The notes under the pieces are model-generated. The model was not told the DNA's origin. It searched no databases and saw nothing but the letters and a program-made list of their open reading frames with translations. The translations under genes and the position numbers were made by a program. Below are positions 21,901 through 24,408 of a stretch of DNA of 64,000 bases, piece by piece. Within the stretch, counting starts at the first letter, position 1, and each line of letters starts with the position of its first letter. Source of the stretch: Bugula neritina (Eukaryota > Bryozoa > Gymnolaemata > Cheilostomatida > Bugulidae); the NCBI GenBank assembly GCA_964035545.1, contig OZ037769.1:14953133-15017132 (forward strand). The letters are read 5' to 3'.

Positions 21901-24408
21901 TGTTACCATATTAGGTATGGATTTGTAATAAACAATAAAGATGTTTCGAAAGTTTTTAGTCTCAATCTCTGGGAGAACTTCTATAGTTAAATTAATTTTG
22001 TTACCTTTCTGAAATAAAGCTGATTAATGATGACAGTTACTTTTTTGCAATATGTTTCTTTAATTTACAACTTCTTAACTATAATAGCCGGGAATTATAT
22101 GATCTGCTGTAAAATAATATGTTTATGTTCTTTGAATTATAACTCAAATTAGGTTTTGTCCTCATAAATAACCTTTATCTTTACTATATGTTACAATATT
22201 AAATTACATATTACTATATTATGATTTTCTTATATAATACTATATTATTACATTACTAAAATATAACCTTTATATATATACTATATATTACAAAAATAAA
22301 CTATATATTACTATATTATAATTTTGCTATATGATACTATATTATTATAATACTACTAAATTACCATATTACTATAATATATTATTATACTAAATATCAC
22401 CATATTACTATATTGCTATGTTGCTATAACACTACATCATTATATTTGTATATTGTTATATATGACTACAATTATATAATAACTTATAGTATATTATAAT
22501 ATAAGTATTATTATAATAATAGTATTGTATTACTATATTACTCATACATAATTTACACTGCATTAAACTAGTGCTGAGTATAATCAATACACCATGACAT
22601 GTCCATATGCCTCACTCTATTCTCTAGGTGTAGCCAATATAGTAGGCAGTGGTACAGTGGCTTTAACTAGTTCTCTCAAGTTCAACAGAGTGATGCTACA
22701 CTTTGCTGCCATATTACTTTCTGGAGTCACCGCAGTGGCTGCGTCATATACTATCACAAAGGTCTTATAAAAATTATATAGTTTTCATATGCAAAATATA
22801 CATTTGAAAGTATAAAGTACAGCTTTTTAAATTTTAAAGATTAGTTTCACCTTTAAAAGATAGCAGAACTTTTTTTGCAAAAGAATGTATTACAAATTGA
22901 AGTTGCAGATTCCTTGATTTGCATATAATCTTAAAGTTGGTATATATATATATATATATATATATATATATATATATATATATATATATATATATATATA
23001 TATATATATATATATATATATATATATATATATATATATATATATATGGCTTGAGTTTACACACCTTTTAAATATGCTTTAGTAAAACTATAAGTTTTGC
23101 TATTGTGAAGGTGTGGGCCATGGTACTCTGTTCTGTGCTGATGAGGGGACAAATCCCGAAACAGCTGCTGTCCACAGATTGAGATATATATATATATATA
23201 TATATATATATATATATATATATATATATATATATATATATATATATATATATATATATATATATATATATATATATATATATATATATATATATATATA
23301 TATATATATACTGTAACATCAATATAAGTCATCGCTTATTTGTAAGCTTTTTTTAATGTATTGTCTTTTTATTTGAAATATTTTGGGTCAATGAAAGTTT
23401 CAAAAGTTTTAATATCATTTTGATTTTGAAAGGTTGGTCAAGTATAGTGAAAACGTGAGAAAACAATTTTCTGAATAAATAACAGAATTTAGTAAGCTAT
23501 AAAGAAATCTATTCACCATGTAATATGCTTTAAGAAAATCCTTTTGTTTTATACAGGAAATGTACTACACCCTAGCAGCTTGCTGGGGTCTGGGTGCCAG
23601 TGTCACCCTCTCTACTATACTCGGTCTTGCAAGTGACTTGTGCAAGCCAAGACAGCTGCCTCTGGTGTTTGGGTTACACTTGTTTGCTGCCGGTGTGGGC
23701 TCTCTCGGACTGGTGCCTCTCGCAGGTTTCTGTTCAAGTAACAATTCAGATGAGTCTGTCTCACGATTCATCTATACAGTTTGCTTTTTTATTTATAAAG
23801 AAATGCAATAATTTATGATGTCATGTGTTTTATGTTGGTTGATGGCATCAATGTTAAATTACTAAATTTTGAATTAATGAATTTTTAAGTTCTGATTTCT
23901 AAATTACTAAATTATAATTTCAAATTTTAAGTGTAATGCAAATATATAACATTTTATTTTGGGTTTGAGTATAAGATACATATTTTACTTTGTGAAACAG
24001 CGTTTTGTTAAAAGTGCAACTTTTACTTCTCCCAGTTGCTTCCTTAAAATAATTGTGATTGCAAGACAGATACATTTCTGCAAATATAGGAGAATATCAA
24101 TGTTCATCACTACACAGCCATTACTGAAAGGCCTAAACTGAGTTATATATATATATATATATATAAATATATATATATATATATATATATATATATATAT
24201 ATATATATATATATATATATATATATATATATATATATATATATATATATATATAGAATATTAATATAAATGTATGTTTTCTCTCGCAGCTGAAGTTGGA
24301 GCTCAGTTTAATGAAAGATACGGACTGATTTTGGTCGGAGGATGTGGAATTCTGGGAGCATTTACTATTCTTCCTATAGCCATACAACAAATGAAGAAGA
24401 AACAATAA
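18971..24408 (+). CDS. Monocarboxylate transporter-like protein (SLC16/MFS), gene 3
   Basis: Exons: 18971-19196, 19537-19680, 19941-20192, 20646-20740, 21069-21194, 21782-21914, 22628-22761, 23557-23725, 24290-24408 (stop TAA 24406-24408). They total 1,398 nt, or 465 residues, the usual size for SLC16. TM1 carries the family signature (KDGGYSWVV), followed by [13 protein letters not shown] (the TM2-TM3 loop) and a 12-helix layout. The TM6-TM7 loop is acidic ([17 protein letters not shown]). Donors at 20,741 (GTTTCT), 22,762 (GTCTTA) and 23,726 (GTTTCT) are weak but keep phase and match paralogue boundaries. Intron 22762-23556 holds two (AT)n arrays around a hammerhead motif; intron 23726-24289 ends in a third. 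An AATAAA overlaps the stop codon. Confidence 0.88.
21422..21608 (-). repeat. tRNA-derived SINE, inverted, in transporter gene 3 intron
   Basis: Read on the minus strand it gives GCAGCTGTGGTCTAAGGGTT (head), then AGAGCATCCAATCATAATTA and TCCTGTGCCTCATCTGAATA (body). The 3' end resembles the CTTTCTATCAGGGG tail of the other copies. It is the most complete copy in the first 25 kb. Confidence 0.65.
22940..23047. repeat. (AT)n array upstream of the hammerhead motif
   Basis: A pure AT dinucleotide run of about 108 bp in the gene 3 intron. A 135-bp unique segment, which carries the hammerhead motif, separates it from the next array. Confidence 0.95.
23132..23178 (+). ncRNA. Type I hammerhead ribozyme motif
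   Basis: All conserved core parts are present in order. Stem I 5' strand is TCTGTG (23132-23137), then CTGATGA (23138-23144). Stem II is GGGG (23145-23148) with TCCC (23154-23157), three G-C pairs and one G-U, around loop ACAAA. GAA follows (23158-23160). Stem III is ACAG (23161-23164) with CTGT (23168-23171), loop CTG. H17 is C at 23172, making the classic GTC triplet. The stem I 3' strand CACAGA (23173-23178) pairs fully with TCTGTG. The predicted cut is between 23172 and 23173. A short stem III with a tiny loop and open stem I is the type I form known from metazoan retroelements. It lies sense-strand in a transporter gene 3 intron. Confidence 0.85.
23183..23310. repeat. (AT)n array downstream of the hammerhead motif
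   Basis: About 128 bp of pure AT dinucleotides beginning about 5 nt after the hammerhead 3' strand. With 22,940-23,047 it brackets the motif. Confidence 0.95.
24143..24255. repeat. (AT)n array before the last exon of transporter gene 3
   Basis: An AT run with one interruption near 24,165, ending about 35 bp before the last-exon acceptor (24,289). It leaves little room for a polypyrimidine tract, which is present as TTTTCTCTCGCAG. Confidence 0.9.

What the first reader, a model, noticed from the sequence alone, without database searches (positions are those of the whole stretch)
23132..23178. Complete type I hammerhead ribozyme in a transporter gene intron
Every invariant core element is present and all three stems pair: TCTGTG/CACAGA (stem I), GGGG/TCCC (stem II), ACAG/CTGT (stem III), with CTGATGA, GAA and a GTC cleavage triplet. 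Chance assembly is very unlikely. It lies between two (AT)n arrays in the sense-strand intron 22762-23556 of SLC16-like gene 3, so a working copy would cut the pre-mRNA. Known metazoan type I hammerheads with short stem III are linked to Penelope-like and other small retroelements; no such element is recognisable around this one.
Basis: partly seen in the sequence, partly recalled or inferred. Interest (0 to 1): 0.92.

Follow-up and report, generated by a model that had tools for sequence, protein, structure and literature searches.

The report
Ribozyme retroelement in AT microsatellites
The self-cutting RNA motif is real, but it is one truncated copy of a small jumping element with hundreds of copies, which lands in runs of ATATAT and leaves scars suggesting how its RNA is copied into DNA.

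Summary
The hammerhead is real: all core bases and three stems at 23132-23178, plus an outer CTC/GAG helix. Rfam does not report it. It is not an isolated intronic motif. The 136 bp between the two (AT)n arrays are a 5'-truncated, 98.6% identical copy of a family of 271-bp units, with 281 exact-match 3' ends in this 216-Mb genome. It fits the metazoan non-LTR retrozymes named in 2020.

The junctions are the news. In 70 of 71 catalogued insertions the 3' end aligns to U14-U15, about 12-15 nt past the cleavage site, beside (AT)n and in one AT phase; 5' ends fall at 46 positions with AT microhomology. This looks like target-primed reverse transcription starting inside the RNA and crossing the cleavage site, so cleaved linear monomers cannot be the template. 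A Penelope-like element (PLE-A) and a probable second one (PLE-B, judged by eye) also end at (AT)n, and PLE-A lies near retrozymes more often than chance. Cleavage, circles and the mobilising enzyme are inferred.

The parts
22941..23047 (.). left (AT)n array, part of the target site
   Evidence: read directly
23048..23183 (+). 5'-truncated retrozyme copy, about half a unit: unit positions U147-U271 then U1-U11 (U1 = first base after the cleavage site). BLAST carries it to 23047-23187 through bases shared with the AT arrays; 98.6% identical to the L027 unit
23126..23183 (+). type I hammerhead including the outer stem I helix CTC/GAG and internal loop TGT/TT; this region is identical to the commonest variant (44 of 92 ungapped windows in the fetched loci)
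23172..23173 (+). predicted self-cleavage site (after the GTC triplet)
   Evidence: inference from the motif; not tested
23184..23310 (.). right (AT)n array; its first bases ATAT coincide with unit positions U12-U15, the inferred priming patch
22762..23556 (+). plausible host intron (GT-AG, phase 0) of a transporter-like gene; the retrozyme lies in sense orientation

Best explanation
The motif is the 3' end of a 5'-truncated insertion of a non-autonomous, non-LTR retrozyme. Proposed cycle: (1) tandem 271-bp units are transcribed; (2) the hammerhead cuts the RNA into monomers; (3) a host RNA ligase closes them into a highly self-paired circle; (4) a Penelope-like element's reverse transcriptase/endonuclease nicks an (AT)n microsatellite; (5) the nicked 3' end pairs with the UAU patch (U13-U15) about 12 nt downstream of the cleavage/ligation junction and primes cDNA synthesis leftwards, across that junction and round the template; (6) synthesis stops after a variable distance (0.13 to 4 turns); (7) the cDNA end is joined to the target at AT microhomology. 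Shown by sequence: the 3' start point, its AT phase, the crossing of the cleavage site, variable 5' ends, tandem turns and 5' microhomology. Inferred: transcription, cleavage, circularity, and which reverse transcriptase does it. The window copy holds a single hammerhead, so it cannot release a unit-length circle by itself; it could at most cut the intron.
For: Exact 271-bp tandem units between AT arrays. Of 71 distinct insertions catalogued, the 3' alignment end is U15 in 69, U14 in 1 and U191 in 1; 5' ends fall at 46 positions; lengths 36-1089 bp. An (AT)4 or longer run lies within 30 bp on the right in 71 of 71 and on the left in 56 of 71, while AT arrays of 20 bp or more make up 1.3% of the window. 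Of 409 exact copies of a 17-mer ending at U11, 80 continue into the next unit, 188 + 93 run straight into 11-12 A/T bases, 48 do neither. Phase: no junction has the other AT phase directly after the element, in 100 listed of 188 (subfamily I) and in 93 of 93 (subfamily II). Subfamily II keeps its G at U12, which puts the start at or beyond U12. 5' microhomology of at least 1 nt in 45 of 50 junctions scored (of 56 AT-flanked), against 28% expected at random. PLE-A: RT and GIY-YIG in one frame in L089; 3' end GTAAAG followed by 12 A/T bases in 122 places. Retrozymes within 5 kb of PLE-A on C1-C3: 6 of 92 against 0.48 expected, 0 of 2000 circular shifts. The unit folds as a circle at -99.6 kcal/mol, z = -7.75, 0 of 200 shuffles as low.
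Against: No RNA data: cleavage, circles and expression are untested. Most catalogued loci were found with queries that include or end at the 3' junction, so its constancy is partly built in. Only 7 of the 71, seen incidentally in flanks, escape this; all 7 end at U15. One insertion ends at U191, at another AT patch. Two of the 100 listed subfamily I junctions shift AT phase 2-4 bases into the array. In the L006 four-unit array the first three units share two variants absent from the terminal unit, which a single circular template does not explain. Clustering with PLE-A could reflect a shared taste for AT arrays rather than shared machinery, and the LINE and LTR-like controls (0 of 92 each) are weak, since only 0.19 and 0.51 were expected at 5 kb. 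Most PLE-A 3' ends carry extra bases (mostly ATATATTTA) before the array; 19 of 100 listed run into pure AT.
Confidence: 0.75

Rival explanations
1. Same retrozyme and same target-primed insertion, but the template is an uncleaved multimeric transcript rather than a circle.
For: Frangieh et al. [quoted passage not shown] Heterogeneous units in L006 and other arrays.
Against: 12 of 71 insertions start at the priming patch itself, giving about whole turns (0.97-1.02, 2.00-2.01, 4.02), as expected when synthesis returns to its start on a circle. Two other 4-nt AT patches in the unit have 1 and 2 starts in the same catalogue, but among the C1/C2 loci, which were not picked by length, the counts are only 5 against 1 and 2. 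AT microhomology alone could explain part of this.
Confidence: 0.3
2. The retrozyme is mobilised by a LINE rather than a Penelope-like element.
For: LINEs are abundant here, and the 2020 paper names LINEs or PLEs as possible mobilisers, PLEs being its strong candidate (PMC7229834, parts 1-4 of 6 read).
Against: The six top-scoring RT loci examined (two LINE families) end in (CAAA)n or (AC)n, not (AT)n. None of 22 LINE hits lies within 20 kb of 92 retrozymes, but only 0.82 were expected. Only the best-scoring RTs were seen (150 of 2124 candidates scored), so an AT-targeting LINE could have been missed.
Confidence: 0.12
3. DNA-level dispersal: units excised as DNA circles by recombination between (AT)n arrays and reinserted into other arrays.
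For: Both flanks hold (AT)n in 56 of 71.
Against: Recombination gives no polarity, yet the 3' end is nearly fixed while the 5' end falls at 46 positions, including pieces of 36-49 bp.
Confidence: 0.05
4. A domesticated intronic hammerhead that regulates this transporter gene.
For: Sense orientation in an intron; ribozyme region identical to the family's commonest variant.
Against: The same sequence occurs in hundreds of places. Among fetched copies the ribozyme core is barely less variable than its loops (0.025 against 0.034 variants per site), which a young family explains without selection.
Confidence: 0.03
5. A chance assembly.
For: No Rfam match; MFE prefers another fold.
Against: 0 hits in 60 simulated windows; hundreds of near-identical copies, many in tandem.
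Confidence: 0.01

Closest known systems
Metazoan non-LTR retrozymes (Cervera & de la Pena 2020, PMC7229834; coral, mussel, axolotl)
   Same: Type I hammerhead in tandem repeats of about 170-400 bp (here 271), low GC (43.2%), highly self-paired as a predicted circle, coexisting with Penelope-like elements that bear hammerhead-type motifs.
   Different: A different sequence (the paper calls the repeats species-specific). (AT)n targeting and a mapped start site are not described in parts 1-4 of 6 that I read, and a word search of its main text finds no 'microsatellite' or 'dinucleotide'; it says target duplications, when present, exceed 4 bp. Circles and cleavage are shown there, not here.
Penelope-like elements with internal initiation (Poseidon of Anolis, PMC11167929, parts 1-2 of 4 read)
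   Same: Reverse transcription starting inside the RNA downstream of a hammerhead, preference for AT-rich DNA, alternative 3' ends ('tail').
   Different: Those encode their own RT/endonuclease; [quoted passage not shown]
Plant LTR retrozymes (PMC4918200, seen in search listings only)
   Same: Non-autonomous elements with hammerheads and circular RNA intermediates.
   Different: Type III hammerheads in LTRs, thought to use Gypsy machinery (both from PMC7229834).
Conserved intronic hammerheads HH9/HH10 of amniotes (recalled, not from a call)
   Same: A hammerhead in a gene intron.
   Different: Those are single conserved motifs; this is one of hundreds of repeat copies.

Membership tests
Metazoan non-LTR retrozyme | type I hammerhead with intact core | tested here: met
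Metazoan non-LTR retrozyme | short tandem repeats of 150-450 bp, dimers to multimers | tested here: met
   271-bp units, up to 4.02 turns; 17 of 71 insertions exceed 1.1 turns. The window copy itself is about half a unit
Metazoan non-LTR retrozyme | GC below 45-50% | tested here: met
   43.2% for the L027 unit
Metazoan non-LTR retrozyme | no LTRs, primer-binding site, polypurine tract | not tested
   no dedicated scan was run
Metazoan non-LTR retrozyme | highly self-paired circular RNA | tested here: met
   prediction only: circular fold -99.6 kcal/mol, z -7.75, 0 of 200 shuffles as low
Metazoan non-LTR retrozyme | loop I-loop II tertiary contacts | tested here: inconclusive
   an internal loop in stem I and a 5-nt loop II are present; the contact itself was not tested
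Metazoan non-LTR retrozyme | self-cleavage, and linear and circular RNA in tissue | not testable with these tools
   no RNA data
Metazoan non-LTR retrozyme | coexistence with hammerhead-bearing Penelope-like elements | tested here: met
   PLE-A with a hammerhead-like motif (one extra T before stem II, by eye) and a probable PLE-B with a canonical-looking one
Rfam Hammerhead_1 (RF00163) | score at or above the gathering cut-off of 34 bits | tested here: not met
   no match in the window. The genome-wide family search also found none, but its controls did not ring either, so it is uninformative
Hammerhead inside a Penelope-like element (pLTR) | Penelope-like sequence next to the hammerhead | tested here: not met
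   pieces of PLE-A (L089, L091) and PLE-B (L041) have no BLAST match in the window at E<=1e-3
Penelope-like element (PLE-A, the proposed partner) | RT plus GIY-YIG endonuclease | tested here: met
   both in one frame in L089; GIY-YIG probe hits; RVT_1 matches below cut-off, 22.3 and 28.6 of 29.6 bits; relatives carry RVT_1 and PF26215, and two of 120 listed carry GIY-YIG. The Pfam GIY-YIG model matches neither PLE-A frame and in the genome finds only one gene, SLX1-like from recall
Penelope-like element (PLE-B) | RT plus GIY-YIG endonuclease | tested here: inconclusive
   RT-like and GIY-YIG-like frames judged by eye in L041 only; Pfam finds no family in the 229-aa frame

The most novel reading that the evidence does not exclude
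Metazoan retrozymes are parasites of AT-microsatellite-targeting Penelope-like elements: the ribozyme-made RNA circle is primed directly by a nicked (AT)n target through a 3-4 nt UAU patch just past the ligation junction and copied for one or more whole turns, so the genomic junctions are a fossil record of rolling-circle target-primed reverse transcription. This would identify the primer, and give sequence evidence for the PLE partnership that the 2020 paper proposes as its strong candidate.
Probability: 0.5. Interest if true: 0.72.

Novelty: new member of a known kind. Interest (0 to 1): 0.55.

Why it matters
[quoted passage not shown] This family gives a concrete answer to test: a defined target, (AT)n; a defined start; and a Penelope-like partner (plus a probable second) in the same genome. 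Because the start lies just downstream of the cleavage site, self-cleaved linear monomers are excluded as templates, which narrows the role of the ribozyme in transposition to making circles, or to none. For the host, it is a source of potentially self-cutting RNA in introns that contain AT microsatellites.

Tried and rejected
Rejected: a chance motif (simulation; genome copies); a lone intronic ribozyme; a fragment of a PLE; mobilisation by the two LINE families examined.

Led nowhere: Rfam scans of the window and of L088 and the RF00163 genome search, whose controls did not ring. The Pfam GIY-YIG model missed the Penelope elements and found one other gene. Within-array homogeneity did not separate circle from multimer templates: some arrays are uniform, others heterogeneous. 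Ribozyme conservation against loops showed no clear selection. A loose hammerhead pattern was uninformative (6 matches, 8.73 expected). The species was not identified. The 2014 and 2017 papers on Penelope hammerheads are not held.

Caveats on counts: one search scored 40 of 784 candidates. Of the retrozyme loci, L001-L030 are best hits to the window copy; L031-L060 are all exact 20-mer hits on C1; L061-L080 are 20 regions obtained of 60 asked for. Overlapping loci were merged to 71 insertions; L041, L042 and L072 gave no BLAST alignment and are not in the 71, nor are the copies in L088 and L090, fetched later. Pattern listings show at most 100 places: 100 of 263, 100 of 188, 100 of 122 and 100 of 409; some searches were listed in full. 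The figure of 19 of 100 was counted by hand. In the clustering test I copied positions on C1-C3 by hand and merged those within 1.5 kb; the LINE and LTR-like control sets were labelled from hit scores and open-frame lengths, and only L082-L087 were inspected. The 7 pairs printed within 6 kb include one at 5.1 kb that is not in the count at 5 kb.

Full report
OBSERVATION. Sequence 23126-23183 reads as a type I hammerhead: CTC-TGT-TCTGTG / CTGATGA / GGGG-ACAAA-TCCC / GAA / ACAG-CTG-CTGT / C / CACAGA-TT-GAG. The outer CTC/GAG helix with an internal loop was not in the finding; such a loop in stem I is where canonical type I hammerheads make their loop-loop contact (general knowledge). A descriptor scan finds one site in the window and none in 60 simulated windows. 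Rfam does not report it even at E<=10, nor the two intact-core hammerheads of related elements in L088 at E<=1, so a silent Rfam says little here. The genome-wide RF00163 search is uninformative because its controls did not ring.

WHAT IT IS. The 138 bp between and just into the AT arrays were searched in the window's own 216-Mb genome: 40 matches (40 of 784 candidates scored) were returned at 98-100% identity, several in steps of exactly 271 bp. L027 shows 3.1 perfect copies of a 271-bp unit between AT arrays. An exact 20-mer spanning the ribozyme's 3' side occurs 263 times, its reversed control 0 times. Aligning the fetched loci to a circularised unit, numbered from the first base after the cleavage site (U1), gave 71 distinct insertions; three loci gave no alignment. 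The window copy runs from U147 to U11: half a unit, 98.6% identical, with a hammerhead region identical to the commonest variant.

JUNCTIONS. The 3' alignment end is U15 in 69, U14 in 1 and U191 in 1 of 71; the 5' end falls at 46 positions; lengths run from 36 to 1089 bp, 0.13 to 4.02 turns. An (AT)4 or longer run lies within 30 bp on the right in 71 of 71 and on the left in 56 of 71. Because most of these loci were found with queries that include or end at the junction, I counted independently: of 409 exact copies of the 17-mer ending at U11, 80 continue into the next unit, 188 run into 12 A/T bases, 93 (a second subfamily with G at U12) run into 11 A/T bases, and 48 do neither. So 281 of 329 non-internal copies abut A/T runs directly. 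This count still cannot see 3' ends elsewhere in the unit. Seven insertions of the 71, met only incidentally in flanks, also all end at U15. No junction has the opposite AT phase directly after the element (100 listed of 188; 93 of 93), although two of the 100 shift phase a few bases further on, and the second subfamily keeps its G at U12. The start therefore most likely lies on the UAU patch U13-U15. At the 5' side, 45 of 50 scored junctions share at least one base with the array, against 28% expected, and 12 of 71 begin at the same ATAT patch, giving nearly whole turns (0.97-1.02, 2.00-2.01, 4.02). Genome-wide, 31 places join an A/T run to U16.

MECHANISM. A fixed 3' end with variable 5' ends is the signature of target-primed reverse transcription (established knowledge of non-LTR retroelements). 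Since the start is 12-15 nt downstream of the cleavage site, a self-cleaved linear monomer could give at most about 15 nt of cDNA; every catalogued insertion is longer (minimum 36 bp). The template was thus a circle or an uncleaved RNA spanning the junction. I favour the circle because of the whole-turn starts, the strongly self-paired predicted circle (-99.6 kcal/mol, z -7.75) and the circles shown in other animals (PMC7229834). The evidence is not decisive: L006 has heterogeneous units, and for the published Anolis PLE unprocessed RNA is the suggested substrate in vitro (PMC11167929).

PARTNER. A generic GIY-YIG probe finds 96 places, at E-values from 1.3e-6 to 2.1. The four fetched loci encode reverse transcriptase and/or GIY-YIG pieces, both in one frame in L089, and relatives in other animals carry RVT_1 and PF26215. 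This PLE-A ends ...GCTAGCTCGTAAAG followed by 12 A/T bases in 122 places; in all four fetched loci an (AT)n array follows within about 35 nt. A hammerhead-like motif, CTGAAGATGGG...CCCGAAAT, lies about 110 nt before its 3' end. A probable second element, PLE-B, carries a canonical-looking type I hammerhead (stem I ATTTAT/ATAAAT, GTA triplet) and has two alternative 3' ends, each at (AT)n: 8 of 8 copies seen, four of each, though all in loci picked for retrozymes or PLE-A. Its RT-like and GIY-YIG-like frames were seen in one locus and judged by eye (L041); Pfam finds nothing in the latter. Retrozymes lie within 5 kb of PLE-A in 6 of 92 cases on C1-C3 against 0.48 expected, 0 of 2000 circular shifts; LINE and LTR-like controls give 0 of 92, with 0.19 and 0.51 expected, so they are weak. 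The two LINE families examined end in (CAAA)n or (AC)n. A shared target and 3' start geometry make a PLE the likeliest mobiliser; a shared taste for AT arrays could explain the clustering alone.

COMPARISON. It meets most testable criteria of metazoan non-LTR retrozymes and fails none of them; LTR, PBS and PPT absence was not tested. I file it there as a new family. In what I read I saw no account of (AT)n targeting or a mapped start site for retrozymes; the PLE partnership itself is proposed in PMC7229834. My searches cover only open-licence PubMed Central; the 2014 and 2017 PLE-hammerhead papers are not held. For PMC7229834 I read parts 1-4 of 6 and searched its text for words; for PMC11167929 parts 1-2 of 4; for PMC7761336 and PMC11722881 passages only.

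THE INTRON. Open frames flank the stretch; the downstream one matches MFS_1 weakly. The copy is in sense orientation and its ribozyme looks intact, so it may cut the pre-mRNA. With one hammerhead it cannot excise a circle, and nothing I found points to use by the host.

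Noticed in passing
L041 minus strand (frames 2-1120, HHR at 1238), also HHR copies in L049, L050, L064, L088, L089: A probable second Penelope-like element (PLE-B; frames judged by eye in L041, no Pfam match) with a canonical-looking type I hammerhead (CTGACGA, GTA cleavage triplet) just 3' of a GIY-YIG-like frame, and two alternative 3' ends about 80 nt apart, both at (AT)n, like the PLE 'tail'.
   Followed up: partly
L088, L089, L090: AT arrays act as hubs: PLE-A, PLE-B and retrozyme copies abut the same (AT)n runs in tandem or tail-to-tail.
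   Followed up: partly
L006 552-1640: Four-unit retrozyme array in which the first three units share two variants absent from the 3'-terminal unit; hard to explain by copying one circle.
   Followed up: no
L075 1347-1590 (minus): The only catalogued insertion with a different 3' end (U191, ACTATA), at another AT patch: perhaps an alternative priming site.
   Followed up: no
L071 1569-1728 and L066 1117-1400: Diverged copies, 76-78% identical to the unit, suggesting that the family is not only recent.
   Followed up: no
window 25975-26817 (minus): A 280-aa open frame with Cys/His motifs resembles (by eye) a frame next to a LINE in L086 (3-755): possibly a repeated element-encoded protein.
   Followed up: no
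window 32738-32788 and 50282-50332: Two nearly identical stretches 17.5 kb apart, each with what looks like the same exon-intron border, suggesting duplicated genes.
   Followed up: no
L083 3' end; L082, L084-L087 3' ends: Two LINE families ending in (AC)n and (CAAA)n respectively: other simple-repeat 3' tails in this genome.
   Followed up: partly
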